Shown piece after piece: positions 2,412-15,030 of a stretch of 20,268 nt of DNA. The position numbers and the translations under genes were made by a program. The first letter of the stretch is position 1. The number at the start of each line of letters is the position of its first letter. A model generated the notes under the pieces. The model had not been told where the DNA came from, searched no databases, and saw only the letters and a list, made by a program, of their open reading frames with translations. The DNA comes from a virus, in the IMG/VR virus record IMGVR_UViG_3300027971_000273, positions 1 through 20,268 of that record; one strand, 5' to 3'.

Positions 2412-4217
2412 ATGGCGAAGCGCACCGCACCGAAGGCGCGAGCGAGCCGCAAGGCACCGGCTCCCCGTGCGCCCCGGCAGGTGACGGTTGTCAAGCAGAC
2501 TGTCCGCGCCCGGTACGACGCCGCTCAGACGAGCGACGACGCTCGGCACTGGGCGAACGCCGACTCGCTGTCGGCCAACGCCGCTCTCGTGCCAGAGGTG
2601 CGGCGGATCATCCGTAATCGTGCCCGGTACGAGCGGGCCAACAACGCCTACGTCCACGGCATCTGCACCACGAAGAGCAACGACCTCATCGGCATCGGGC
2701 CGCGGGTTTTGCTCTTGACTGGCAATCCGGTGGCGGATCGTGCGATCGGCCGGGCTTGGTACGACTGGTCTTGGCACGTCCGTCTGGCCGACAAGCTCCG
2801 CGTTGCCACCGAGGCGAAGTTTTTGGACGGCGAAGCGTTCGCGCTGTTGTTCACCAATCCACGCCTCGACTCGCGCGGGGTGCAGCTCGATCTGCGGCTG
2901 ATCGAGGCCGATCAAGTCGCCTCTCCGGCCTACCAGTGGCAGCAGACCGTGTCGCCCGACGGGTCGCTCGTGGACGGAATCGAGCTTGACGTTCACGGCA
3001 ACGTGACCGCGTTCCACGTGCTCAAGACACACCCCGGCAGCAACTACCTTCTCGGCGTCAACGAGTACGACCGCATTGCCGCTCAGGACATGCTGCACTG
3101 GTTCCGCTCGACGCGGCCCGGCCAGCACCGCGGCATCTCCGAGTTGGCACCGTGCCTCCGGCTGACGGCGAACATGCGGCGCTACACGGAGGCCGTGATC
3201 CGGGCCGCCGAGATCGCCGCCGATCTCGCCGCGTTCGTCCACAGCAACTCGCCGGCCGCCCAGGTAGACGAGGTCGATCCGTTCGCCGCGATCGAGATCG
3301 AGAAGGGCACGCTGACAACGTTGCCCGAGGGGTGGGATATCTCCCAACTCAAGGCCGAACAGCCCACCAACACGCACCAAGCCTTCACGCGGACGATTCT
3401 CGGCGAGATCGCGCGGGGCGTCAATTTGCCGTACCACAAGGCGGCTTTCGACGCCTCGTCCTACAACTTCTCGTCGGCCCGCCTCGACGGCTCGCTGCAC
3501 GACCAAAACGTCCGAGTTGACCGCGACGAGCTCGAGCGATCCTGGCTCGACCGGATCTTCTCCGCGTGGCTCGACGAGGCTCTGCTCGTCCCCGGCATGA
3601 TCCCCGACGATATGCCGCCGGTGAGCGAGTGGAACTGGCAGTGGATCTGGAACGGAAACGACGGCATCGATCCGGTCAAGGAATCGAACGCCACCGAGAC
3701 GAAGCTTTCCACGCTCACCACCTCGCTCTCTGCCGAGTACGCGCGACAGGGGAAGCAATGGGACGAGGAATTGCGGCAGATCGCTGCCGAGCGGCAGTTG
3801 ATGGCAGAGCTTGGTCTGACGATCGGCAATCGGCCGTCGCAGATCGTTGTGCCGCAGTCGGACGCCGTCAACGCTACTGCCGTGCCGACCGTCACGGCCG
3901 CCGAGTCGTACCAGCCGACCGCCGAGATGCGAGCCGAGGCGGAACGTGGCCTCGCGTGGCGTCGTGAGTTCGGCCGCGGCGGCACCGAGATCGGCGTGGC
4001 CCGTGCCCGCGACATCGCCAACGGTCGGCCGCTCTCGCTCGACACCGTTCAGCGGATGGCGAGTTACTTCGCCCGGCACGAGGTGGATAAGCAGGGACAA
4101 GGCTGGAGCCAGGGCGAGGACGGCTATCCGTCCGCCGGCCGCATTGCCTGGGCGCTATGGGGCGGAGACGCCGGTCAGACGTTCGCCAACCGCATTACCG
4201 AGGGGGCCAACGCATGA
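2412..4217 (+). CDS. Portal protein, lambda gpB-type, with extra C-terminal domain
   Basis: This 601-residue protein forms the dodecameric ring at the capsid vertex through which DNA enters and leaves. Lambda-type portal features are visible: a basic N-terminus, the RYERANNAYVHGICTTKSND stretch near residue 75, DGEAFALLF, LRLIEADQV, the helix ISELAPCLRLTANMRRYTEA, and SYNFSSARL in the C-terminal half. After about residue 503 the protein continues with an extra domain: ERGLAWRREFGRGGTEIGVA, then RMASYFARHEVDKQG and GYPSAGRIAWALWGGDAG. I recall this pattern at the ends of assorted phage structural proteins but cannot name it. The ATG directly follows the connector stop, and its own stop overlaps the next start (ATGA). 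Confidence 0.92.
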   Translation: MAKRTAPKARASRKAPAPRAPRQVTVVKQTVRARYDAAQTSDDARHWANADSLSANAALVPEVRRIIRNRARYERANNAYVHGICTTKSNDLIGIGPRVLLLTGNPVADRAIGRAWYDWSWHVRLADKLRVATEAKFLDGEAFALLFTNPRLDSRGVQLDLRLIEADQVASPAYQWQQTVSPDGSLVDGIELDVHGNVTAFHVLKTHPGSNYLLGVNEYDRIAAQDMLHWFRSTRPGQHRGISELAPCLRLTANMRRYTEAVIRAAEIAADLAAFVHSNSPAAQVDEVDPFAAIEIEKGTLTTLPEGWDISQLKAEQPTNTHQAFTRTILGEIARGVNLPYHKAAFDASSYNFSSARLDGSLHDQNVRVDRDELERSWLDRIFSAWLDEALLVPGMIPDDMPPVSEWNWQWIWNGNDGIDPVKESNATETKLSTLTTSLSAEYARQGKQWDEELRQIAAERQLMAELGLTIGNRPSQIVVPQSDAVNATAVPTVTAAESYQPTAEMRAEAERGLAWRREFGRGGTEIGVARARDIANGRPLSLDTVQRMASYFARHEVDKQGQGWSQGEDGYPSAGRIAWALWGGDAGQTFANRITEGANA

Positions 4218-6097
4218 CGAATCTCTCGATCCAATCGGCAGTGCAGTTTCTACGCGCCGACGATCACGGCGGCGAGGGCGAAGGGCTTTCGACGCCGCGG
4301 ATTCCGCGGTTTTCGATGGTCGGCTACACGGGCGGCCTGATCCGCCAGGCTTGGAGCCGCGAGCCAGTCGTCATCGACCTCGCCGGCATGACCGTGCCGT
4401 CGGTGATCCCGATCGTCTTCGGCCACGACTACTCGCTCGAGGCGGTCCTCGGCCAGGGTACCGGCACCGTCGGCAACCAGCTCGTCATCGACGGCGCGAT
4501 CCTCTCCGTCTGCGACGCGGCCATGCAGGTCGTGCAGCTCGGCGACCGCGGCTACCAGTGGCAGGCGAGCGTCGGCGCTGACGTTGACGAGGACTACCTC
4601 GTAGCGTCTGGCGACACCGCACAAGTCAACGGGCAGACCTTCCAAGGTCCGGTCCGAATCGTAAAGCGCTCCACGCTGCGGGAGTGCTCGTTCGTCACTT
4701 TGGGGGCCGATGCAGCGACGGCCGTCACCATTACCGCCAACACGGCGGGGGAGTCTCCTATGTCCGCAGAGACGCAGGCCGCCGTCGACGTGATGCCGAC
4801 CGGCCCCGATGTTCAGCAGACCGACGCAATGCCAACCGGACCTTCTGACATGGCTTCGGCCGCGCCGAAGGTCGATCTCGCTTCGATTCGCGCCGAGATC
4901 GTGGCCGATGTCACCCGCGATGTGAAGGCCCAACTCCTCAAGGATCTCCGCGACGTGCGCGGCGGGCCGGCGATCCACGCCAGCAAGCCGGCCCTCGACG
5001 ACGATCAGGTCACGATCGCCGCCATGCAGGTCGTCGGCGGGCTCGGCAAGCAGATCGAAGCCAAGTACGGTGATTCGCCGATGGTCGAGGCCGCCAACAA
5101 GCGGAGTCGCACGATCGGCCTTCAGGAAGTCCTCGTCAGCGCCGCTCGCAAGGGCGGGTATGACGGTGTCCACAAGGTCACGGCGGGGAACATTGGGGTG
5201 ATTCTGCGGGCGGCTTTCGCCACCCACAACATCTCCAACATCCTCGCCGCGACGTACAACAAGTACCTCCTCAACGGCTTCGAGGCCGTCGAGTCGGTCT
5301 GGGATCAGATCTCGCTCGTTCGGCCGCTCAACGATCTGAAGGCCATCACCGGCGTTCGGCTCGACGGCGGATTCGTGTTCGACGAAGTGGCGGGCGACGG
5401 GCGTCTGAAGTCGGCGGATGCCGGCGATGCGACCCGCACGCTCCAGGCCAAGACATACGGCCGCATCTCGTCGATCTCAAGAGCCGACATCATCAACGAC
5501 GACCTCGGGGCTCTGACGGCGGTTCCCCGCCGGCTTGGCCGCGGTGCGGCGTTGAAGTTCAACTCGGTGTTCTGGACCGAGTTCCAGGTGGGTGCGACTG
5601 CCAACGCTAGCTACTACCAGGGGGCGACCGCTGGTGCGGGCAATGCGATGGCGATCGGGTCGGTCGAGACTGCTTACGCGGCGTACCGGTCGCTCAACGA
5701 TCCGGACGGCAACCCGCTCGGCATCACGCCGAGGATCCTGCTCGTCCCCGTCCAGCTCCGGATCACGGCCGACAAGATCCAAACCGGCAACACGCTCCTG
5801 GCCTCCTCGCTCGGCTCGACCTCGAGCCGCGTCGTCGAGCCCCAGGCCAACGTGCTCGCCGGGAAGTTCGTGATCGTCGATTCGGCGTACCTCACCTCGT
5901 CTACGACGTGGTGGCTGTGTGCCGATCCGAACGATCTGCCGGTCATGGAAGTCGGCTTCCTCAACGGGCAGCGGTCGCCGATCGTCGAGCAGGCGGAAGC
6001 CTCGTTCGACACCCTCGGCATCGAGGTCCGCGGGTACTTCGACTTCGGCGTTTCGAAGGCCGAGCCGCGGTCGTGCTACCGCATGGCGACATCCTGA
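4214..6097 (+). CDS. Prohead protease / major capsid protein fusion
   Basis: A 627-residue polypeptide joining a prohead protease to the major capsid protein. The protease part (about 1-175) has a candidate catalytic His in FGHDYS (H71) and Ser in ECSFVTLGAD (S159). Residues about 183-290 form a polar, acidic-basic helical scaffold-like segment including two MPTGP repeats. The rest is a capsid protein of the Mu gpT-like type, with SRADIINDDLGALT and RRLGRGAALKFNSVFW. Such fusions are a known phage arrangement. I start it at ATG 4214, which overlaps the portal stop (ATGA) and follows GAGGGGG; the longer open frame to 4157 would lie inside the portal gene. A strong internal ribosome binding site precedes in-frame Met183, see separate entries. 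A perfect hairpin follows the stop. Confidence 0.9.
   Translation: MTNLSIQSAVQFLRADDHGGEGEGLSTPRIPRFSMVGYTGGLIRQAWSREPVVIDLAGMTVPSVIPIVFGHDYSLEAVLGQGTGTVGNQLVIDGAILSVCDAAMQVVQLGDRGYQWQASVGADVDEDYLVASGDTAQVNGQTFQGPVRIVKRSTLRECSFVTLGADAATAVTITANTAGESPMSAETQAAVDVMPTGPDVQQTDAMPTGPSDMASAAPKVDLASIRAEIVADVTRDVKAQLLKDLRDVRGGPAIHASKPALDDDQVTIAAMQVVGGLGKQIEAKYGDSPMVEAANKRSRTIGLQEVLVSAARKGGYDGVHKVTAGNIGVILRAAFATHNISNILAATYNKYLLNGFEAVESVWDQISLVRPLNDLKAITGVRLDGGFVFDEVAGDGRLKSADAGDATRTLQAKTYGRISSISRADIINDDLGALTAVPRRLGRGAALKFNSVFWTEFQVGATANASYYQGATAGAGNAMAIGSVETAYAAYRSLNDPDGNPLGITPRILLVPVQLRITADKIQTGNTLLASSLGSTSSRVVEPQANVLAGKFVIVDSAYLTSSTTWWLCADPNDLPVMEVGFLNGQRSPIVEQAEASFDTLGIEVRGYFDFGVSKAEPRSCYRMATS
4747..4762 (+). 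promoter_or_regulatory. Internal ribosome binding site and in-frame ATG for scaffold-capsid product
   Basis: GGGGGAG at 4747-4753 is followed six bases later by ATG at 4760-4762. This ATG is in frame with the fusion gene (codon 183, exactly after the protease domain). Initiation here would give a 445-residue scaffold-capsid protein beginning MSAETQAAVDVM without the protease. The layout parallels lambda, where scaffold Nu3 starts inside protease gene C in the same frame. That the site is used is inference. Confidence 0.6.
4760..6097 (+). CDS. Nested scaffold-major capsid product (alternative start)
   Basis: This is the predicted second product of the fusion gene, 445 residues, started at the internal ATG 4760 with a strong upstream GGGGGAG. 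It would contain the scaffold-like segment and the whole capsid domain but no protease. A shell needs hundreds of capsid subunits and only a few protease copies, so an independent start would fix the ratio. The protein sequence across this start switches from the protease end (AVTITANTAGES) to a low-complexity linker, consistent with a domain boundary. It is supported by the Shine-Dalgarno and frame only; proteomics of virions would be needed to confirm it. Confidence 0.5.
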   Translation: MSAETQAAVDVMPTGPDVQQTDAMPTGPSDMASAAPKVDLASIRAEIVADVTRDVKAQLLKDLRDVRGGPAIHASKPALDDDQVTIAAMQVVGGLGKQIEAKYGDSPMVEAANKRSRTIGLQEVLVSAARKGGYDGVHKVTAGNIGVILRAAFATHNISNILAATYNKYLLNGFEAVESVWDQISLVRPLNDLKAITGVRLDGGFVFDEVAGDGRLKSADAGDATRTLQAKTYGRISSISRADIINDDLGALTAVPRRLGRGAALKFNSVFWTEFQVGATANASYYQGATAGAGNAMAIGSVETAYAAYRSLNDPDGNPLGITPRILLVPVQLRITADKIQTGNTLLASSLGSTSSRVVEPQANVLAGKFVIVDSAYLTSSTTWWLCADPNDLPVMEVGFLNGQRSPIVEQAEASFDTLGIEVRGYFDFGVSKAEPRSCYRMATS

Positions 6098-6625: not shown

Positions 6626-7051
6626 ATGGCCGACATGCTCTCCGCCGGTGCCGCGTGGCTCGCCGACCAGTTCGCGGCGTCGGCGTCGCTCACCGTGGCA
6701 TACAAGCGGGGCGTGAACTCGTCGCAGTTCGTCGCCACGATCGGGAAGAGCATGTTTGAATCGAGCGGTCAGAACGGTGTCACAGAGCAATGGGAAAGCC
6801 GCGACTACATCGTCAAGACGGCCGATTTGCCGTACGGCGAGCCGCTGCGTGGTGACCTGATCGTCGAGGACATAGGCGGAGTGTCGGTGTTCTACGAAGT
6901 GACCGCACCTCGAGGCGTGCCGCTGTTTCACTACGGCGATGCCTTCCAGCAGCTCGTCCGCGTCCACACCAAGCGGACGGACAAGGATCAGACCTACATC
7001 ATCACCGACCAGGGCGAAGAGATCGTCGTGCCGCTCACCGCTCAAGGCTGA
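6626..7051 (+). CDS. Probable head-tail joining (head closure) protein
   Basis: A 141-residue protein following the decoration gene, the position of lambda FII-type head-tail attachment proteins. Visible features are an N-terminal amphipathic helix (MADMLSAGAAWLADQFAASA), then short beta strands: LTVAYKRG, FVATIGKSMFE, VTEQWESRDYIVKTADLP, GEPLRGDLIVEDIGG and VSVFYEVTAPRG, ending in a strand with RVHTKRT. The alternation of strands and the RGD-x-I/V turn resemble small neck proteins I recall from similar phages, in which the joiner caps the connector and receives the tail. GAGGTG precedes the ATG. The assignment rests on position and general pattern rather than a diagnostic motif. Confidence 0.5.
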   Translation: MADMLSAGAAWLADQFAASASLTVAYKRGVNSSQFVATIGKSMFESSGQNGVTEQWESRDYIVKTADLPYGEPLRGDLIVEDIGGVSVFYEVTAPRGVPLFHYGDAFQQLVRVHTKRTDKDQTYIITDQGEEIVVPLTAQG

Positions 7052-7055
7052 CATC

Positions 7056-7616
7056 ATGCCGCTTTTCAAGCGCGTCGATCAACTGCCAGCGGCGACCGGC
7101 GTTACCGGCACCGACTATCTGATTCTCTCGCGGCCTTCAGGCCCGACGGGGACGGTCGGCACGCGGGCTGTCAGGCTCTCGCAGATCCTCGCCCTCGCTA
7201 CGGGCGGTAGCGGCAGCGTTGGTGCTACCGGTCCCACGGGCAGCCCCGGAGCCGCGTCTACGATTACCGGGCCGACGGGCGTGGCGGGCAGCAACGGGGC
7301 GGCAGGAAGCAACGGCAGTGCCGGGGCCACGGGGCCGACGGGCGCGCCTGGGGCGGCGGGCAGCAACGGCAGCGCCGGGGCGGCTGGGGCAACCGGCCCC
7401 ACGGGCAGTCCGGGGGCGGCCGGCAGCAACGGTGCGGCGTCCACGGTTACCGGCCCGACCGGAGCGGCGGGGGCGGCTGGCACGAACGGCACGAACGGCA
7501 GCAACGGCGCGGCGGGGGCCACCGGCGCGACCGGCCCCACGGGCATCGTCTTTTCGTACGGCACGGCCTACCCGACGGGCGGGAATGCGGGCGACCTTTA
7601 CCTACGTCATTCGTGA
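7056..7616 (+). CDS. Collagen-like Gly-X-Y repeat fibre protein
   Basis: A 186-residue protein made of a short N-terminal head (MPLFKRVDQLPAATGVTG ... SQILALATGG), about 36 Gly-X-Y triplets (residues roughly 50-165) and a short tail ending AGDLYLRHS. The triplets are rich in GPT, GSN, GAA and GAT, and are broken twice by the four-residue insertions STIT and STVT. Collagen-like repeats form trimeric rods in phage fibres. GPT-rich collagen of Bacillus BclA is O-glycosylated on Thr, so the glycosyltransferase genes nearby are suggestive. I chose ATG 7056, four bases after the preceding stop; the open frame reaches further back but only inside the previous gene. The ribosome binding site is weak. 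Confidence 0.85.
   Translation: MPLFKRVDQLPAATGVTGTDYLILSRPSGPTGTVGTRAVRLSQILALATGGSGSVGATGPTGSPGAASTITGPTGVAGSNGAAGSNGSAGATGPTGAPGAAGSNGSAGAAGATGPTGSPGAAGSNGAASTVTGPTGAAGAAGTNGTNGSNGAAGATGATGPTGIVFSYGTAYPTGGNAGDLYLRHS
7200..7551 (+). repeat. GC-rich tandem repeat encoding Gly-X-Y triplets
   Basis: Degenerate 9-base-periodic repeats dominated by GGC/GGG, AGCAACGG and CCSACGGGC words encode the collagen-like segment. A larger unit (GATGPTG-S/A-PGAA followed by SNG or ST-I/V-TGPTG) recurs about three times. Such repeats typically change copy number by slippage or recombination, so fibre length may vary between relatives. Confidence 0.8.
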
Positions 7617-7623
7617 GGCCGCG

Positions 7624-8067
7624 ATGAACTTGTCCGCTCTTGCCTCCAAGATTGCAGAACCACAGTACCGCGGCATGGACAACCAGCTCCTGGCCGATGC
7701 GGTCAACGGGCTCCGCGTGTCCGTCCGTCGGCCGGTGCCGACGTGGCAAGTCCGTCAGACCGCAATCGAAGGCGGCTACTGGCCCGCGTTGATCGAGGCT
7801 CGAGAATCGACCACGCCGGCCGTTCGCGCTCTGGCGATCACCGTCCTCGCGTGGATCGACGATCAGTCGGGCACGATCCAGAGCGTCGACATGGACCGGG
7901 CCGCGGTGGTCAACATGCGGGCCGCGCTCGTTCAGGCTGGAATCTGTTCGCAGGCCCAGGCCGATGCGCTATCCGCTCTGGCCGACGCCTCGATCCCGTG
8001 GACGGAATCGGTGGGGCTCGGAGAGATCGGCATCGGCATGGTTATCAACGCTCGGAGGATTTCGTAA
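7624..8067 (+). CDS. Conserved phage protein of unknown function
   Basis: A 147-residue, mostly helical soluble protein beginning MNLSALASKIAEPQYRGMDN. It contains a RRPVPTWQVRQTAIEGGYWP segment, an Ala-rich helix (TPAVRALAITVLAWIDDQ), a block MDRAAVVNMRAALVQAGICS and a C-terminal WTESVGLGEIGIGMV. The PVP-x-x-x-V followed later by a Trp and a C-terminal E-x-x-GLG reminds me of an uncharacterised protein found in many phage tail-fibre neighbourhoods. I choose ATG 7624 because GAGG at 7615-7618 lies just upstream, overlapping the previous stop. It shares TAATG with the next gene. It could be an assembly factor or a structural accessory of the fibre genes around it. Confidence 0.7.
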   Translation: MNLSALASKIAEPQYRGMDNQLLADAVNGLRVSVRRPVPTWQVRQTAIEGGYWPALIEARESTTPAVRALAITVLAWIDDQSGTIQSVDMDRAAVVNMRAALVQAGICSQAQADALSALADASIPWTESVGLGEIGIGMVINARRIS

Positions 8068-8573
8068 TGGCGCTGATCTACCCCACATACGACGTAGCGG
8101 CCTACGGGCTCACGCTAACGACCGCAGGCATGACGAGCGACACCAACCTCCTTGCAGGGTGGCAGTCGAACGTCATCGATAACACGTCCACCAACTACGA
8201 CGATTTCATCCTTCAAGCCAGAGCAACAACCGGAACCAGCCCAACGGCTTCTCGGTCAATCGAATGGTGGCTGATCGGATCGGCAGACGGATCGCTCTGG
8301 CCCGACACGATCACTTCGGCTGGCACGGCTCAGAAGACGTTGACAAGCGCTGATATCAAGGCAGCGATCACTGTCTATATGCAGACCGTCGCAACGTCTG
8401 CGACAAGCAACCAAGCGTACAACACGCGCGTATGGTCTGCGAAAGCACTGTTTGGCGGGGAGCTTCCGCCAAAGTTCCTTGTCTGGCAAGTTCACAACAC
8501 TGGCGTTGCTCTGAACGCGACTGCCGGAAATCACTACGTGCAGGTTCAGCCGATCAAGCGCAACGTGAACTGA
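8067..8573 (+). CDS. Predicted virion structural protein (fibre-associated)
   Basis: A 168-residue protein beginning MALIYPTYDVAAYGLTLTTA. It is rich in Thr, Ser, Asn and Ala with regular beta strands, such as TSTNYDDFILQARATTG, RSIEWWLIGSADG and NHYVQVQPIKRN. The N-x-x-DD-F-I/L followed by a strand and a T-G-T-x-P-T turn resembles small phage appendage proteins I have seen, but I cannot name a family. The ATG overlaps the previous stop (TAATG), with GGAGG at 8054-8058. Its stop overlaps the next start (TGATG). Base composition falls visibly from here to about 9200 compared with the head genes, which suggests a more recently acquired appendage segment. Confidence 0.7.
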   Translation: MALIYPTYDVAAYGLTLTTAGMTSDTNLLAGWQSNVIDNTSTNYDDFILQARATTGTSPTASRSIEWWLIGSADGSLWPDTITSAGTAQKTLTSADIKAAITVYMQTVATSATSNQAYNTRVWSAKALFGGELPPKFLVWQVHNTGVALNATAGNHYVQVQPIKRNVN

Positions 8574-9367
8574 TGCCACGCTACGAATACCCATCGCTGC
8601 GGCAGGGGCTTGTGTTCGCCTGGAAGGGCGATTCGGCATCGACCGTCATGATCGATGAAGCCCAACGGAGCCGAGGAGCGTGGTCAGGGACAAACCCAAC
8701 GACTCAGTTCGGCGCGGCAAACTTTGATGCGGTCGGCAATTACGTTGCCATCACCGAGAAAACCGGACTGTCTGGAAATGTTCCGATCACCGTGTCGGCG
8801 TGGGCCAGACCGACCAGCACTGTTGCGGGAGGCATTTGTCGGCTAGGTGGCGTGTCCGCTGGCATCAGAATGGTGTCAGGGAGTTGGAGTTTTTTCGGTG
8901 ACGGCGCAACTGTGTTCGCGCCAACGTCAGGAAACTCCATCACGGCAAATGCGTGGCAACACGTTCTTTACACATACCCTGGAACTAAATACGAAGACTC
9001 GTTGTGCTATTTCAATGGTGCTGGCCCATTCACGGTCACGCGAACCAATGGAACAACTAATAGCGGCATGAACTGGGTGGCCGGTGGTGCGTCTCACATC
9101 GGCATGAACAACTTCACTGCCTATTTCCCAGGGCAGATCGCAGACGTTCGCGTCTACAATCGCGTGTTGACCCTTTCCGAAATCCGCCTCCTCGCCAGCC
9201 GTCGCGGGATCGGGCTCCAGCCGTTGCCGGATCGCGGCGGCGGGTTGCCGAGGAAGTTGAGCGTGAACGTGGGCGGGACTTGGCGAGACGGCGACGCCTA
9301 CGTCAACACCGGTTCCGGCTGGCGTCTCGGGATTCCGTCGGTCAACGTCGGCGGCACGTGGCGCTGA
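8573..9367 (+). CDS. LamG-like (concanavalin-fold) appendage protein
   Basis: A 264-residue protein with a LamG/concanavalin A-like lectin fold signature: an N-terminal YPSLRQGLVFAWKGD, NYVAITEKTGLSGNVPITVS, AWQHVLYTY, an internal FNG strand, and the typical closing QIADVRVYNRVLTLSEIRLL. Such domains usually bind carbohydrates or form part of receptor-binding appendages. The last 40 residues carry two copies of SVNVGGTWR (230-238 and 256-264), the second forming the exact C-terminus; similar GGTW repeats occur at the ends of phage fibre proteins. The start is ATG 8573, overlapping the previous stop (TGATG). Most of the gene is less GC-rich than its neighbours, while the C-terminal repeat part returns to high GC. 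Confidence 0.78.
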   Translation: MPRYEYPSLRQGLVFAWKGDSASTVMIDEAQRSRGAWSGTNPTTQFGAANFDAVGNYVAITEKTGLSGNVPITVSAWARPTSTVAGGICRLGGVSAGIRMVSGSWSFFGDGATVFAPTSGNSITANAWQHVLYTYPGTKYEDSLCYFNGAGPFTVTRTNGTTNSGMNWVAGGASHIGMNNFTAYFPGQIADVRVYNRVLTLSEIRLLASRRGIGLQPLPDRGGGLPRKLSVNVGGTWRDGDAYVNTGSGWRLGIPSVNVGGTWR

Positions 9368-9369
9368 CG

Positions 9370-9420
9370 CACCCCCTCCGCTCCCCCCGCCCCTCCCGGC
9401 ACGATTGCGAGCCGAGGAGG
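9370..9420 (+). repeat. Intergenic element copy B (CACCCCC ... ACGATTG, then GAGGAGG)
   Basis: The gap after the LamG-like gene starts with CACCCCCTC (9370-9378), three bases past the stop, runs through a C-rich stretch, and has ACGATTG at 9401, exactly 31 bases from the start of the first box. GAGGAGG follows at 9414-9420. Both boxes and their spacing match the copy at 19959. This junction is where the sugar cassette begins. Confidence 0.5.
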
Positions 9421-9425
9421 ACGAT

Positions 9426-10496
9426 ATGCACGAACACCTACACGCCCTGGCGATTCACGCCTTCTATTGCGGCGAGATAGACACCGGACGACGAGCCAGC
9501 GACCGGCTCTTGAACATGCCGCTGCCGGACGACCTCGAGCGGCAGGCTCGGGCGAACCGCACGTGGTACACGCCGCTCCTGGCCGACCTGGCGTTCCACA
9601 CGCCCCGGCGGATCGAAGTCGAGCCGGCCCACGCCGGCTGGACGACGTTCAACCCGACCGTCATCGCAGACGGAACCGGCCTCCTGGCGATCGTCCGGTC
9701 AAGCAACTACCGGATCGACGCGGCCGGGCGGTACGTGATCCCTCCTGAGGACGGCGGGTCGATCCGCACCGAGAACATCCTCTGCCGCATCGACAAGGAC
9801 GGGAACGCCTACGACCGGCGGGTCATCGTGCCGCCGGCCTACGAGCCGAACGGCTACCCGGTTCACGGGCTGGAAGACTGCCGGCTTCGCCGGACGCCCC
9901 GCGGCGTCAGCGTCTCCGCGACGGTCCGCGACGCGGCACCGTGGACGGGGCAATGCCGGATCGGGGTTGCCGACCTCGACGTGAGCGAGGCCCGGCTGCA
10001 CGGGCTCCGGGTGCTCGAGTGGGAAGGGCTCGAGCCGCATGAAAAGAATTGGATGCCGCTGCACGGTCAGGACGGCTGGCTGTACGCCGCCAACCACGCA
10101 GGCCAGACGGTCACCGTCGCAGCCGATGCCGACATGCCGGGCGTCTACGAGGTGCAGGCCCGCGGCCCGTCTCCGCACCTCGCCAAGGGCTTCCGGGGCG
10201 GCGGGCAGCTTGTGCCGGTCCGCGGTGGGTGGCTGGGAATCGTTCACGAGGTGGCGCACATCGAGGACGGCCGGCGAGCGTACGAGCATCGGTTCGTCTG
10301 GTTTGACGCTTCGTTCACGCTCCGTCGGTGGTCGCCGCTGTTCTCGTTCAAGGCCACCAAGTCGATCGAGTTCGCCGCCGGGCTGGCGGGGCTCGACGGG
10401 CAGATTGTCGTGGCGTTCGGCGTCAACGACGCGGAAGCCTGGACGACCTCAATCGCAGAGGAGGACGTATGCGAGCTGCTCGCGCCTGTCTCGTGA
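9426..10496 (+). CDS. GH130-like five-bladed propeller protein
   Basis: A 356-residue protein with a short helical N-terminus (about 1-50, possibly TPR-like) and a beta-propeller resembling glycoside hydrolase family 130 relatives, which include mannoside phosphorylases. Motifs are FNPTVIADG (75-83), SIRTENIL (112-119), HGLEDCRL (147-154), HEKNWMPL (205-212), FRGGGQLVPV, SIEFAAGLA and FGVNDAEAW (331-339). In GH130 enzymes the conserved E-D in this kind of motif is in the active site. The start is ATG 9426, five bases after GAGGAGG; an upstream ATG at 9405 lies before the ribosome binding site. It overlaps the next gene by 28 bases and opens the sugar cassette. Enzymatic activity versus glycan binding cannot be decided from sequence. 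Confidence 0.7.
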   Translation: MHEHLHALAIHAFYCGEIDTGRRASDRLLNMPLPDDLERQARANRTWYTPLLADLAFHTPRRIEVEPAHAGWTTFNPTVIADGTGLLAIVRSSNYRIDAAGRYVIPPEDGGSIRTENILCRIDKDGNAYDRRVIVPPAYEPNGYPVHGLEDCRLRRTPRGVSVSATVRDAAPWTGQCRIGVADLDVSEARLHGLRVLEWEGLEPHEKNWMPLHGQDGWLYAANHAGQTVTVAADADMPGVYEVQARGPSPHLAKGFRGGGQLVPVRGGWLGIVHEVAHIEDGRRAYEHRFVWFDASFTLRRWSPLFSFKATKSIEFAAGLAGLDGQIVVAFGVNDAEAWTTSIAEEDVCELLAPVS

Positions 10497-11134
10497 CCGG
10501 GTATATCCGTTTGGATCTACCAAACCGCTCGCACGACGAATACGAGCGGCTCGGCCGGCAGCTCGTCGGCGCTGCCGAGGCCGGCGGGCACCTCGTCAAC
10601 GTCTTCGGCGGCACGGTCGAGGACTGCTGGCACTACCATCTATCCGCCGGGGCAGAACTGCCGCTCGGGAATCCGGGCAAGGACTCGCGGGAGTTCCTTG
10701 CCGTGCAGCATCAGAAAACCGCCTGGGTGGCGGACGCCGCGACGATCACCGACGCCGACGTGCTCGTGTGGATGGACTACGGCCTGTTGCACGTGCCGGG
10801 GATTACGGCCGGCATGGTGCCGGCGTTCCTTGAGCGGGCCGCCGCGTCGGCCCCGCGGGACCGGGTCGGGATGGCATCGATCTGGGGGCCACCCCGGCGG
10901 ATTCCCGACTGGCGGTCGGTCGAGTGGTGGTGTGCCGGCGGCGTGTTCACGGTGCCGCGGTCGATGGCTTTTGCGTGGCACGACGCTGTCGTCGATCGGG
11001 CGACGGCGATCCGGGCGGCCGGGCACGTGACGTGGGAAGTCAACACGTGGGCGACCGCCTGGGCGAGGTGCAGCAACGTCGTCCGGCCGTGGATCTGTGA
11101 CCACAACGAGACGATCTTGGAGGCTGGGCCGTGA
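10469..11134 (+). CDS. Glycosyltransferase-like protein, resembling HtrL/YibB
   Basis: A 221-residue protein with features I associate with the HtrL/YibB-like group of putative glycosyltransferases: an N-terminal strand LVTGYIRLD (8-16), a polar region ending in WMDYGLLHV (101-109) that may hold the D-x-G sugar-nucleotide site, then EWWCAGGVFTVPRSM and TWEVNTWATAW near the C-terminus. I choose ATG 10469 because GAGGAGG ends four bases upstream; the longer open frame lies inside the preceding propeller gene. It overlaps that gene by 28 bases and shares GTGA with the next start. Neighbours are all sugar-related, which supports the role. The sequence similarity is loose, so the family call is tentative. 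Confidence 0.55.
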   Translation: MRAARACLVTGYIRLDLPNRSHDEYERLGRQLVGAAEAGGHLVNVFGGTVEDCWHYHLSAGAELPLGNPGKDSREFLAVQHQKTAWVADAATITDADVLVWMDYGLLHVPGITAGMVPAFLERAAASAPRDRVGMASIWGPPRRIPDWRSVEWWCAGGVFTVPRSMAFAWHDAVVDRATAIRAAGHVTWEVNTWATAWARCSNVVRPWICDHNETILEAGP

Positions 11135-11817
11135 ACGACTACGTCGTCATCATCCCCACAAGGAACCGCTACCGGCTCTGCCTGCGAGCGATCCGGTCGG
11201 CGCTGACGCAGACCGTCCCGCCGGCGGAAGTCTTTGTGGTGGACGACGGCTCGGACGACCCGCGGTATCAGTGGCTTGAGGAGATCGTCGGCAGTCCGCG
11301 GTTGACGGTCCTCCGGCGAACCGTCTCAAGCCGGGACGAAACCGGGGCGGGCTTCGCGGTCGGAACCGTGCGAAACGAAGCCATCCGGCACGTGCTCAAG
11401 ATCGGATTCAGCGGCTGGGTAGCGTTCCTCGACGACGACGACGAATGGCTGAAGACCAAGGCGGCGGTCCAGTTCGCGGCCGTCGGATCAAACGGCCGGT
11501 ACGGCGTTCTCTGTTCCAACGCCTTCAACCGCAACCCGGAAGGTGTGGTGAGCGGCTATCACCACGAAACGCAGGGCGTGCAGATCACCGACACCACCCG
11601 CGACGTGACCGCGATCTGCCGGGCCATGAATCCGGTCATCAACTCGACGGCGATGATCCACACGAAGATCGTCGAGCGGTTGGGCGATCAGCAAGCGGTC
11701 GGCTTCGGTGAGGACTGGGACTACTGGCAGCGGGCTGGCCGGCTCACCGGGATCATGCGGGTGGAAGAGCCGCTGGCGTGGTACACGGTGGGCAACCCGA
11801 AGGAATACACGCTATGA
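11131..11817 (+). CDS. Family 2 glycosyltransferase
   Basis: A 228-residue GT-A fold glycosyltransferase of family 2. It shows the N-terminal VVIIPTRNRYRLCLRAI, the nucleotide-binding VVDDGSDD (36-43), and the acidic metal-binding run FLDDDDEW (D101-D104). A late GEDWDYWQR matches the E-D-x-D region that in this family often carries the catalytic base. Such enzymes transfer a sugar from a nucleotide donor to an acceptor in the cytoplasm. The start is GTG 11131, in an overlap (GTGA) with the previous stop, with GGAGG at 11119-11123. The stop overlaps the next ATG (ATGA). It lacks membrane segments, so the acceptor is probably a soluble protein or sugar. Donor and acceptor cannot be read from sequence. 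Confidence 0.9.
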   Translation: MNDYVVIIPTRNRYRLCLRAIRSALTQTVPPAEVFVVDDGSDDPRYQWLEEIVGSPRLTVLRRTVSSRDETGAGFAVGTVRNEAIRHVLKIGFSGWVAFLDDDDEWLKTKAAVQFAAVGSNGRYGVLCSNAFNRNPEGVVSGYHHETQGVQITDTTRDVTAICRAMNPVINSTAMIHTKIVERLGDQQAVGFGEDWDYWQRAGRLTGIMRVEEPLAWYTVGNPKEYTL

Positions 11818-12848
11818 GGATCGGCGTTTACGCTCTCGCCAAGAACGAAGCCAAGCACGCGGCAGCGTGGGCCGCGGCGACTGCCGATGCCGATGTCCGC
11901 GTGGTCACCGATACTGGCTCGACCGACGGCACCGTCGAGCTGCTCCAGTCGGCCGGCGTGACCGTGGCTAGGTCGTACGTCGTCCCGTGGCGGTGGGATG
12001 TCGCCTGGACGCAGGCGCTCTGCAATCTGCCGCCGGATCTCGATGTCGCCTTCCGGGTCGATCTCGACGAGCGGCCCCAGCCCGGCTGGCGATCGGCGAT
12101 CGAGGCGGCGTGGGACGGCACAGCGAATAACCTCGTCTACGACTACTGGTGGAGCCTGGACGACGCCGGCCGTCCGCTGCTGCGGTTCCACTGCGATCGG
12201 GTCCACTCCCGGTCGGGCTTCTTATGGCGGCAGGCAACGCACGAAGGGCTCGTCTGCTGGGCCGGGGAGAAGGTGCAGCGGAAGTGCGACGGCCTGGTCG
12301 TGGAGCACCACCGCGACAAGGGCAAGGCCCACAAGACCGACCTCGATCTGCTGAAGGTCGCGGTCAACGAGTCGCCAACCGACGCACGGGCTCGGTGGTA
12401 CTACGCCCGCGAACTGGACTACGCGGGCATCCCGACCGCGGCGGGTGAGTTCGCCGGCTACCTGAAAATGCCTGGCGGATCGCCGACGGAGCGTGCTTAC
12501 GCGCTTCGCCGGCTGGCGTCGATCACCGGCGACGGGGCGTACCTCGAGCGGGCTGCGAAGGAATCACCGGGAGAGCCCGACGGCTGGGAACGGCTGGCGC
12601 TGGCCGCTCACCACGGCGAGGACTGGCCGAAGTCGCTTGAGTTTGCCGAGCGGGCGATTGCCTCGCCGGTGAGTACTCACGCCACCGACCCGCTGGCGAA
12701 GGCCAGGGCGGCAGAACTGGCGTCGATTGCTTTATGGCACCTCGGCCGCACGGCGGACGCCCTGACGCATGCCAGGGCCGCGGCGGCACAATTGCATTGG
12801 GACGAGCGGATCGTCGGCAACGCAGCGGCAATGGAGGCGAGTCTATGA
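11814..12848 (+). CDS. Glycosyltransferase with C-terminal TPR-like repeats
   Basis: A 344-residue two-part protein. The N-terminal half resembles family 2 glycosyltransferases: YALAKNEAKHAAAW (7-20), VTDTGSTDGTVELL (31-44), and an acidic RVDLDERP (81-88) in the position of the D-x-D metal site. A central W-x-x-H-x-x-EH region (FLWRQATHEG, LVVEHHRDKGK) probably binds the acceptor. From about 205 to 330 the sequence is helical and Ala-rich with TPR-like spacing (ARWYYARELDYAG, DGWERLALAAHHG, ALWHLGRTADALTHARAA). Proteins with this GT plus TPR layout are typical of bacterial glycosylation loci. ATG 11814 overlaps the previous stop. The stop overlaps the next start at 12845, so the cassette is translationally coupled into the tail genes. 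Confidence 0.85.
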   Translation: MRIGVYALAKNEAKHAAAWAAATADADVRVVTDTGSTDGTVELLQSAGVTVARSYVVPWRWDVAWTQALCNLPPDLDVAFRVDLDERPQPGWRSAIEAAWDGTANNLVYDYWWSLDDAGRPLLRFHCDRVHSRSGFLWRQATHEGLVCWAGEKVQRKCDGLVVEHHRDKGKAHKTDLDLLKVAVNESPTDARARWYYARELDYAGIPTAAGEFAGYLKMPGGSPTERAYALRRLASITGDGAYLERAAKESPGEPDGWERLALAAHHGEDWPKSLEFAERAIASPVSTHATDPLAKARAAELASIALWHLGRTADALTHARAAAAQLHWDERIVGNAAAMEASL

Positions 12849-13291
12849 GCGTCCAGAACGACATCATGACGGCGCTCGTCGCCTCTCTCGACGCGGTGAC
12901 GTGGACGGCAACGGCCGCGGCGGTTCTCGTCGAGACGAAGAACTTTCCGCAGTACGACATCGAGGATCTTGCCGATCCCGTGATCTGCATCACTGACGGG
13001 TCAATCGAGTCCGACCGGATCGCCCGGTCTTCGCACATGCGGGACTATGCGGTCGAGATCTACCTTGCCCGGCACACGCCGGAAGAGGCCGACTGCGACG
13101 TGATGCTCGATCTGCTCGAGGAGCTGCTCGGCAAGCTCGAGGATCACTCCTGGCCGGGGATCACGTGGCCGACAGGCGTCACGTCGCCGCAGACGATCGT
13201 CGTCGAGAAGAATCCCGGCGAGGCGCTGCAAGAGCGGAACGTGTGGCGGGCGGGGATCGTCGTGACGTTCCGCGTGCCGAGGAGTCACTGA
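12845..13291 (+). CDS. Probable tail terminator / tail completion protein
   Basis: A 148-residue protein beginning MSVQNDIMTALVASL. It has an amphipathic first helix, a central strand region (PVICITDGS), then SSHMRDYAVEIYLARHTPEE, an acidic helix MLDLLEELLGKLE and a final strand WRAGIVVTFRVPRS. That helix, strand, helix, strand order, and its place just before the neck/tail-completion and tube genes, fit the gpU-like or completion-type proteins that cap the tail tube and join it to the head. I select ATG 12845 over the longer open frame because GGAGG (12833-12837) lies seven bases upstream and it overlaps the preceding stop. No diagnostic motif is seen. Confidence 0.5.
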   Translation: MSVQNDIMTALVASLDAVTWTATAAAVLVETKNFPQYDIEDLADPVICITDGSIESDRIARSSHMRDYAVEIYLARHTPEEADCDVMLDLLEELLGKLEDHSWPGITWPTGVTSPQTIVVEKNPGEALQERNVWRAGIVVTFRVPRSH

Positions 13292-13989: not shown

Positions 13990-14328
13990 ATGGCCGGCGA
14001 AACGATCGTTCTCGGGAAGAACGTCACCTACACGGGGATCAGCAACGTCAGCGACGGGTCGATCACGACCACCTTCACGGAGATCGACAAGACGAAGGCG
14101 GGCGACACCGAGCGGACGATTCTCCGCGGCTGGGCTGAGCAGACGCTTGACCTGACCTGCGTCGACGCGCCGGGCGTGACTGTCGGCAGCGTCGTTGTCG
14201 TGAGCGCCTCCGGGGCCAACGGGCACAACCTCTCTTCCGTGAAGTTCCTGGTCACGAGTGTCAGCCAGTCCGAGCCGCTCGACGACAAGACCACGTTTTC
14301 CGTCTCCTGCACCCGCGGCGTCCAATAA
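13990..14328 (+). CDS. Tail-tube-like protein, paralogue 1 of 3
   Basis: A 112-residue, all-beta protein beginning MAGETIVLGKNVTYTG and ending with VTSVSQSEPLDDKTTFSVSC. Two further genes downstream share this frame: an opening L-G-K/R-N/D and a closing VT-x-VS-x-(2)-x-PLDD followed by a final strand. A small beta-barrel protein just before tail chaperones and tape measure is expected to form the tail tube. Siphovirus tube proteins are often longer, and here three small paralogues exist, so which one polymerises is unclear. GGAGG at 13980-13984 precedes the ATG. The gap to the next start is 12 bases with its own GGAG. Confidence 0.6.
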   Translation: MAGETIVLGKNVTYTGISNVSDGSITTTFTEIDKTKAGDTERTILRGWAEQTLDLTCVDAPGVTVGSVVVVSASGANGHNLSSVKFLVTSVSQSEPLDDKTTFSVSCTRGVQ

Positions 14329-14340
14329 GGAGCGATCGAC

Positions 14341-14661
14341 ATGGCAGTGACTCTCGGTCGGGACGGCGGAACGCCAACGGGCGGCAACGGCGCGACGGGC
14401 GTTCTCAACGTGACGTGGAACCAAGAGGCGACCGCGATCGACGTGTCGCACCGCGGGCTCGTCAACGCGAGCGGCATTTCCTACAAGGCCGCGACCGGCG
14501 GATTCATTACCCGCACGGCGGAAATCGAGTGCCTTGACGCGACGGCGGTGATGACATCGCTGGCGTCGGCTGGCAGCGGCTACATCGTCACCAACGTGTC
14601 TGAAAACAGGCCGCTCGACGGTCCGGTGACGTTCACGCTGACCGCCAAGAAGACCTCCTGA
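14341..14661 (+). CDS. Tail-tube-like protein, paralogue 2 of 3
   Basis: A 106-residue all-beta protein beginning MAVTLGRDGGTPTGG and ending YIVTNVSENRPLDGPVTFTL. It is the most Gly-rich of the three paralogues and has a distinct insert after the opening LGRD. The PLDG in place of PLDD marks divergence. GGAG at 14329-14332 precedes the start by eight bases. As the middle gene of a tandem trio it could be the main tube protein, a tube-end variant or a surface decoration of the tube; the sequence does not settle this. Confidence 0.6.
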   Translation: MAVTLGRDGGTPTGGNGATGVLNVTWNQEATAIDVSHRGLVNASGISYKAATGGFITRTAEIECLDATAVMTSLASAGSGYIVTNVSENRPLDGPVTFTLTAKKTS

Positions 14662-14673
14662 ACGGAGGCGTCG

Positions 14674-15030
14674 ATGGCAATCTATCTCGGCCGAAACGCT
14701 GTTGTGACGTGGGACGGCGTGGCCGTTCCCGGCGTCCGCGACGTGCAGGTCAGCGTGGCCGGTACTACCCGCGAGATCACGCCGTTCGGCAGCCGGGCGA
14801 CGATCTCGTACCAGACCGGATACGCAGTGTCGATCACGCTCGACACAATCGACGACGCCGCGGCGACGACCGCTACCGCGGCAGCCATTGCCGGCACTGA
14901 GATCGCCGTCGTCACCACCGGCTACTCGTTTACGGCGGTCGTCACCAGCGTCAGCGATTCCATGCCGCTGGACGATGTCCGCGTCTGGTCGATTCAGATG
15001 ACGAAGACCCAAACAGGACTCCGCACATGA
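14674..15030 (+). CDS. Tail-tube-like protein, paralogue 3 of 3
   Basis: A 118-residue all-beta protein beginning MAIYLGRNAVVTWDGVAVPG and ending VVTSVSDSMPLDDVRVWSIQ. It carries VPGVRDVQVSV followed by a G-T-T-R-E-I-T strand; the V-x-D-V-x-V-x-x-x-x-T-x-E-I/V pattern, a strand pair followed by a turn, is what I recall from phage tail-tube families, making this the best tube candidate of the three. GGAGG precedes the ATG by five bases. The stop overlaps the chaperone start (ATGA at 15027), so tube and chaperone expression are probably coupled. Confidence 0.65.
   Translation: MAIYLGRNAVVTWDGVAVPGVRDVQVSVAGTTREITPFGSRATISYQTGYAVSITLDTIDDAAATTATAAAIAGTEIAVVTTGYSFTAVVTSVSDSMPLDDVRVWSIQMTKTQTGLRT

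What the first reader, a model, noticed from the sequence alone, without database searches (positions are those of the whole stretch)
7056..12848. Collagen-like fibre with its own glycosylation cassette
Seen: a GPT/GSN-rich Gly-X-Y protein (7056), two structural proteins (8067, 8573), then a GH130-like propeller protein and three glycosyltransferase-like genes (9426-12848) in one overlapping run inside a virion operon. Known: BclA-type GPT collagen is O-glycosylated on Thr by dedicated transferases. Inferred: the phage glycosylates its own collagen-like fibre, or uses the sugar genes to modify host surface glycans. A self-contained phage 'glycosylated collagen fibre' system would be new to me.
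Basis: partly seen in the sequence, partly recalled or inferred. Interest (0 to 1): 0.78.

Follow-up and report, generated by a model that had tools for sequence, protein, structure and literature searches.

The report
Phage collagen fibre with glycosylation genes
A large family of mostly unstudied (mainly freshwater) phages carries, inside its particle-building operon, a collagen-like fibre gene together with a conserved set of sugar-attaching enzymes related to the enzyme that decorates collagen on bacterial spores, so the phage probably sugar-coats its own fibre, though no chemistry has been shown.

Summary
A Gly-X-Y protein (7056-7616), three further genes (7624-9367) and four overlapping sugar genes (9426-12848) lie in one virion operon. 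The 'GH130-like' protein folds like GH130/GT108 mannoside enzymes; the next protein is GT-A-like; then a GT2; then a GT-A+TPR protein. In related phages the GH130-like and GT-TPR pair is a core feature: it holds its place between fibre module and tail genes, its divergence tracks that of the virion genes (Mantel r 0.78-0.92), and it is better conserved than they are. The middle slot varies (GTs, methyltransferases). Relatives of the GT-TPR protein in Clostridia sit next to collagen genes far more often than expected, and the profile aligns end to end with a protein matching the published description of C. difficile SgtA, which attaches GlcNAc to Thr of collagen BclA3. Limits: one clade keeps the collagen fibre without the cassette (6 of 6), a deep clade keeps the cassette with little or no collagen, so co-occurrence alone proves nothing; no sugar-nucleotide synthesis genes were seen; host and chemistry are unknown. 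Best reading: virion-protein O-glycosylation, with the collagen stalk the likeliest target. Known kind, new variant.

The parts
6626..7051 (+). head-tail joining protein; 4 bases upstream of the fibre gene
   Evidence: Pfam Phage_H_T_join_3 5e-27; gap 4 b
7056..7616 (+). collagen-like fibre: conserved N-terminal anchor (aa 1-47), Gly-X-Y stalk (about aa 53-165), short C-terminal tip; likely glycan acceptor
   Evidence: Pfam Collagen 1.3e-13; PHROG tail fibre families; shuffles and anchor comparison
7624..8067 (+). 147-aa protein, unknown, in the fibre module; absent from some relatives
8067..8573 (+). 168-aa protein, unknown, probably structural
8573..9367 (+). LamG/concanavalin-like protein with C-terminal SVNVGGTWR repeats, probable fibre or adhesin part
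   Evidence: Pfam Laminin_G_3 1.6e-19
9426..10496 (+). GH130/GT108-like five-bladed propeller with N-terminal helical extension; probable mannoside-type transferase (core cassette gene)
   Evidence: AF2 pLDDT 92, Foldseek 1e-11 to Uhgb_MS and GH130, 1.5e-6 to GT108; invariant GxED.R motif
10469..11134 (+). GT-A-fold glycosyltransferase-like protein (distant HtrL/YibB link through a homologue)
   Evidence: AF2 pLDDT 94.5; Foldseek 1e-5 to GT6 enzymes; homologue L094 PF09612 1.7e-4
11131..11817 (+). GT2 glycosyltransferase (variable middle slot)
   Evidence: Pfam Glycos_transf_2 7e-16
11814..12848 (+). GT-A + TPR glycosyltransferase, SgtA-like; probable protein O-glycosyltransferase (core cassette gene)
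   Evidence: relatives in Clostridia beside collagen genes; hhalign 97.6% to L414 SgtA-like protein; invariant DTGS, D.DE motifs
12845..13291 (+). next virion gene, overlapping the cassette by 4 bases; marks the right border in relatives

Best explanation
The four genes are a virion-protein O-glycosylation cassette. Proposed steps: (1) the GT-A+TPR enzyme (11814-12848) binds the newly made fibre protein through its TPR part and puts the first sugar on Thr (perhaps Ser) side chains, chiefly in the Gly-X-Thr stalk encoded at 7056-7616; (2) the GH130/GT108-like enzyme (9426-10496) adds a mannose-type residue; (3) the two middle genes (GT-A-like and GT2) extend or cap the glycan, and related phages swap this slot for methyltransferases or other GTs, giving each phage a different glycan; (4) the coated stalk is built into the particle, where it would stiffen or protect the fibre or tune adsorption. 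Shown here: gene content, folds, the conserved core pair and variable slot, co-inheritance with virion genes, relatedness to collagen-adjacent transferases. Inferred: acceptor, linkage, sugars, order of steps and benefit. Donor sugars must come from the host.
For: Folds: GH130/GT108 and GT-A; GT2. Conserved position between the fibre block and g12845 in 51 distinct contigs, with head-tail-joining identity down to 19%. Pair divergence tracks HTJ and g12845 (Mantel r 0.78-0.92, 0 of 2000 permutations), and the pair is more conserved (minimum identity 0.46 and 0.42) than HTJ (0.19) or g12845 (0.15); dN well below dS. 44 of 51 have Gly-X-Y runs of five or more. Independent line: 27 of 39 Gly-X-Y ORFs around 74 Firmicutes GT-TPR loci lie within 2 kb of the GT, 2 beyond 5 kb; in 394 genomes of one order, 4 of 5 genomes with close relatives and 17 of 25 loci of distant relatives have a collagen ORF within 1.5 kb. 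The phage profile aligns over 323 columns with L414, a 358-aa, 10-Cys GT2+TPR protein just upstream of a collagen gene, as described for SgtA, which puts beta-O-GlcNAc on Thr of BclA3 collagen peptides (PMC7157674). Nearest solved GT domain to the A6 profile: GmaR, 2.6e-6. GPT share of triplets 0.04-0.31 in listed cassette phages against 0-0.04 in the clade without it (one clade only).
Against: Collagen fibre without cassette in 6 of 6 contigs of one clade; cassette with little or no collagen in seven contigs and no Pfam collagen in L368, L373, L384, L385. 48 of 74 Firmicutes loci show no collagen ORF within the flank held. GT-TPR to SgtA-like identity is about 25%, so the donor sugar cannot be transferred. 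No mass spectrometry or activity data. Soluble GTs could also act on host glycans.
Confidence: 0.57

Rival explanations
1. The enzymes glycosylate a virion protein, but not mainly the collagen stalk: another fibre, LamG or Fn3-like protein, or the capsid or tail tube, as in mycobacteriophages.
For: Cassette kept where collagen is absent or tiny; those phages have Thr/Ser-rich or Fn3/LamG-like fibres by inspection; a clade with collagen but no cassette exists.
Against: Relatives of the GT-TPR enzyme in Clostridia lie beside collagen genes; most cassette phages have GPT-containing stalks.
Confidence: 0.25
2. The genes remodel host surface glycans (superinfection exclusion), as proposed for GTs of aquatic phages.
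For: Usual reading of phage GTs (PMC7029224, PMC10202952); the GT2 gene resembles polysaccharide GTs such as WcaA and TuaG (below the curated cut-offs).
Against: Cassette lies between head-tail and tail genes, is overlapped by a virion gene and is inherited with virion genes, unlike a moron; GT-TPR relatives include SgtA-like collagen transferases.
Confidence: 0.13
3. The enzymes glycosylate phage DNA.
For: Some phage GTs do so.
Against: No base-hypermodification gene was seen in the 20-kb window; place in the virion operon; TPR architecture and collagen-adjacent relatives.
Confidence: 0.03

Closest known systems
SgtA-BclA3 of Clostridioides difficile spores (PMC7157674)
   Same: GT-A + TPR transferase encoded with a Gly-X-Thr collagen protein; remote full-length homology to a protein fitting SgtA's description
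   Different: Phage virion instead of spore; about 25% identity; the phage adds a GH130/GT108-like enzyme and variable GTs; fibre and GT are 4 kb apart in one operon; no activity shown
Mycobacteriophage virion glycosylation (Freeman 2023, cited in PMC12619734; original paper not read)
   Same: Phage-encoded GTs thought to modify virion proteins
   Different: There capsid and tail tube C-termini are modified; here the proposed target is a collagen stalk, and the set includes GH130-like and TPR-GT enzymes
Mimivirus L230 collagen lysyl hydroxylase/glucosyltransferase (PMC4691112)
   Same: A virus glycosylates its own collagen-like proteins
   Different: Eukaryotic giant virus; glucose on hydroxylysine by an unrelated bifunctional enzyme; here Thr is the expected site and no hydroxylase was found
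GH130 phosphorylases/hydrolases and GT108 mannosyltransferases
   Same: Predicted five-bladed propeller fold, GxED.R motif
   Different: No sequence-family match; extra N-terminal helical domain; reaction unknown

Membership tests
Prokaryotic collagen-like proteins | Long Gly-X-Y repeat | tested here: met
   38 triplets, longest run 19 (shuffle maximum 9), Pfam Collagen 1.3e-13
Prokaryotic collagen-like proteins | Forms a triple helix | not testable with these tools
   needs circular dichroism or structure
SgtA-type collagen O-GlcNAc transferase | GT-A domain followed by TPR, about 350 aa | tested here: met
   344 aa; GT motifs DTGS and DLDE invariant, TPR at 242-324 (TPR hits are weak, below curated cut-offs)
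SgtA-type collagen O-GlcNAc transferase | Homology to SgtA | tested here: inconclusive
SgtA-type collagen O-GlcNAc transferase | Gene beside a collagen gene | tested here: inconclusive
   same operon, 4.2 kb apart; immediate neighbour in many Clostridial relatives
SgtA-type collagen O-GlcNAc transferase | Transfers GlcNAc to Thr of collagen peptides | not testable with these tools
   needs an enzyme assay
GH130 / GT108 | Five-bladed beta-propeller fold | tested here: met
   Foldseek 1e-11 to GH130-type enzymes, 1.5e-6 to GT108 MPT-2/MPT-4
GH130 / GT108 | Match to the family sequence profile | tested here: not met
   no Pfam, PHROG, NCBIfam or PDB profile match; not filed as a member, only as fold-related
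GH130 / GT108 | Catalytic Asp | tested here: inconclusive
   invariant E150-D151-x-R153 resembles the GxEDPR motif known to me; no superposition was made
Phage virion glycosylation systems | GT genes in the virion gene cluster | tested here: met
Phage virion glycosylation systems | Sugar present on virion proteins | not testable with these tools
   needs mass spectrometry; the phage is known only from metagenomes

The most novel reading that the evidence does not exclude
A family of phages, widespread at least in freshwater samples, has as a core virion-assembly function a dedicated collagen O-glycosylation pathway: an SgtA-like TPR transferase, a GH130/GT108-like propeller mannosyltransferase and a swappable extension slot that diversifies the fibre glycan from phage to phage, homologous to spore-collagen glycosylation in Clostridia.
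Probability: 0.4. Interest if true: 0.78.

Novelty: new variant of a known kind. Interest (0 to 1): 0.62.

Why it matters
Glycosylated virions are known for few phages, and collagen glycosylation by a virus only for a giant virus. Here the sugar genes behave as core virion genes of a whole phage family, better conserved than the structural genes beside them, and link phage fibres with spore collagen decoration by a shared enzyme type. It gives a directly testable enzyme-substrate pair and suggests that many aquatic phages may carry family-specific glycan coats affecting adsorption, protease resistance and decay.

Tried and rejected
Co-occurrence as sole evidence: rejected after finding a clade with collagen and no cassette. 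Thr content of the stalk as a discriminator: overall Gly-X-Thr does not separate the groups; only GPT does, with one independent clade. phrog_13126 as a name for the GT-TPR protein: its profile matches all 14 control genomes, so it is not specific. Direct sequence match of the GH130-like protein to PDB: none. Host: isolate phages share only distant TerL/MCP; the window is a viral record, and relatives could not be drawn, so the host stays unknown. No isolate phage has the whole cassette (only 26-33% matches to single proteins). DNA glycosylation was considered and rejected.

Full report
What was checked. The window is a linear 20,268-base virus record without a host genome. It reads left to right as one virion operon: terminase large subunit, lambda-type portal, fused protease-major capsid protein, cement, head-tail joining, then the reported region, then tail genes. 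The reported region is real. P0001 has 38 Gly-X-Y triplets with a longest run of 19, against at most 9 in 20,000 shuffles of the same residues, and matches Pfam Collagen at 1.3e-13. Its first 47 residues form an anchor that is conserved in most relatives compared, with and without the sugar genes. Three genes, not two, lie between it and the sugar genes; the last has a LamG domain.

The sugar genes. The protein at 9426-10496 has no family match by sequence, but its confident model (pLDDT 92) matches GH130-type mannoside enzymes (best 1e-11, Uhgb_MS mannoside synthase) and, more weakly, Leishmania GT108 enzymes (1.5e-6). A G-x-E-D-x-R motif is invariant in the E-D-R positions. The protein at 10469-11134 models confidently (pLDDT 94.5) as a GT-A fold; a distant homologue in L094 hits HtrL_YibB at 1.7e-4, below the curated cut-off. 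11131-11817 is a GT2 enzyme. 11814-12848 has N-terminal GT-A motifs (DTGS, DLDE) and a C-terminal TPR part. Genes overlap by 28, 4, 4 and 4 bases, the last overlap being with the next virion gene.

Relatives. Scans of IMG/VR with the GH130-like and GT-TPR proteins found about 75 contigs with the same arrangement. Broader scans reached forms with head-tail-joining identity as low as 19%. In nearly all of them (exceptions are large-phage contigs such as L052, 197 kb) the pair sits between the fibre module and gene g12845. The pair is constant; the middle slot holds the GT-A protein, GT2s, a second GT-A-like protein, or a methyltransferase. Pairwise identity of the pair follows that of the flanking virion genes (Mantel r 0.78-0.92, no permutation of 2000 as high), and the pair is more conserved (minimum 0.46 and 0.42) than the head-tail gene (0.19) or g12845 (0.15); dN is well below dS for every sugar gene. 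This is the behaviour of a core virion function, not of a recently gained accessory gene.

Does the cassette go with collagen? Of 51 distinct contigs spanning head-tail joining to the GH130-like gene, 44 have a Gly-X-Y run of at least five triplets, 5 have three or four, and 2 have none. Four contigs of 22-42 kb from the deep clade have no Pfam collagen anywhere. Conversely, one clade lacks the cassette (no GT-TPR or GT2 match in contigs up to 43.5 kb; methyltransferase-like and other ORFs by inspection in the slot) yet all six of its contigs have a Gly-X-Y fibre with the same anchor. So within this family the co-occurrence reflects common ancestry and cannot by itself show that the fibre is the substrate. 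The clade without the cassette has almost no GPT triplets (0-0.04 of triplets against 0.04-0.31), which fits the idea but is one evolutionary event.

Independent evidence from bacteria. The GT-TPR alignment found relatives almost only in Clostridia and Paenibacillaceae. Around 74 such loci, 39 Gly-X-Y ORFs were found within 10 kb; 27 are within 2 kb of the transferase and 2 beyond 5 kb, although flanks were searched nearly evenly. The 1.2-kb gaps are explained by tandem copies of the transferase. In an even draw of 394 genomes of one order, 4 of 5 genomes with close relatives and 17 of 25 loci with distant relatives have a collagen ORF within 1.5 kb; some of these genomes are close kin, so the counts are not fully independent. 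One distant type (L414) is 358 aa with 10 cysteines, GT2 plus TPR, directly upstream of a collagen gene; this is how SgtA of C. difficile is described, the enzyme shown in vitro to add beta-O-GlcNAc to threonines of BclA3 collagen peptides (PMC7157674). The phage profile aligns with it from end to end (hhalign 97.6%, 4e-12). The nearest solved GT domain to the joint profile is GmaR (2.6e-6), known to me as a flagellin O-GlcNAc transferase.

Interpretation. The best reading is that the cassette glycosylates a protein of the virion, and that the Gly-X-Thr stalk is the likeliest acceptor, with the GT-TPR enzyme starting the glycan and the others extending it. I put about 0.57 on this form, 0.25 on virion glycosylation with another main acceptor, 0.13 on host glycan remodelling. 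The cassette brings no sugar-nucleotide synthesis genes that I could see, so it depends on the host for donors and is not self-contained.

Novelty. Viruses that glycosylate their own collagen (mimivirus L230, PMC4691112) and phages that glycosylate virion proteins (mycobacteriophages, cited in PMC12619734) are known; spore collagen glycosylation is known. I found no paper describing this combination in phages, in a library that lacks most subscription journals. It is a new variant of a known kind. 'Freshwater' is my reading of contig names from memory; sample sources were not looked up.

Noticed in passing
L239-L312 (Clostridia, Paenibacillaceae), e.g. L268, L256, L288: A second, apparently undescribed SgtA-like GT-TPR subfamily, often in tandem pairs beside collagen genes, distinct from the SgtA-type proteins in L412-L419.
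   Followed up: partly
L139, L145, L153, L157, L160, L161: A clade of related phages lacks the sugar cassette; the slot holds methyltransferase-like and other ORFs.
   Followed up: partly
L052 coordinates 8001-12182 (197-kb contig): A large phage contig has the GH130-like gene and one long ORF fusing a methyltransferase, a GT34-like domain and the GT-TPR enzyme.
   Followed up: no
window 4157-6097: The protease and the major capsid protein appear to be one fused gene overlapping the portal gene by 61 bases.
   Followed up: no
window 13990-15030: Three consecutive small genes look like tandem paralogues (the profile of the first cross-matches later ones in relatives), possibly tail tube or decoration proteins.
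   Followed up: no
window 9262-9364 (end of the LamG gene): The protein ends in repeats of the type SVNVGGTWR, shared with PHROG 21772 of unknown function.
   Followed up: no
A6 profile and L414 protein: The TPR part weakly matches the TPR-like peptide-substrate-binding domain of prolyl 4-hydroxylase (PF23558 8.6e-5 for L414; PDB 6evl 0.0018 for the profile), a hint, no more, of how such transferases might hold collagen chains.
   Followed up: no
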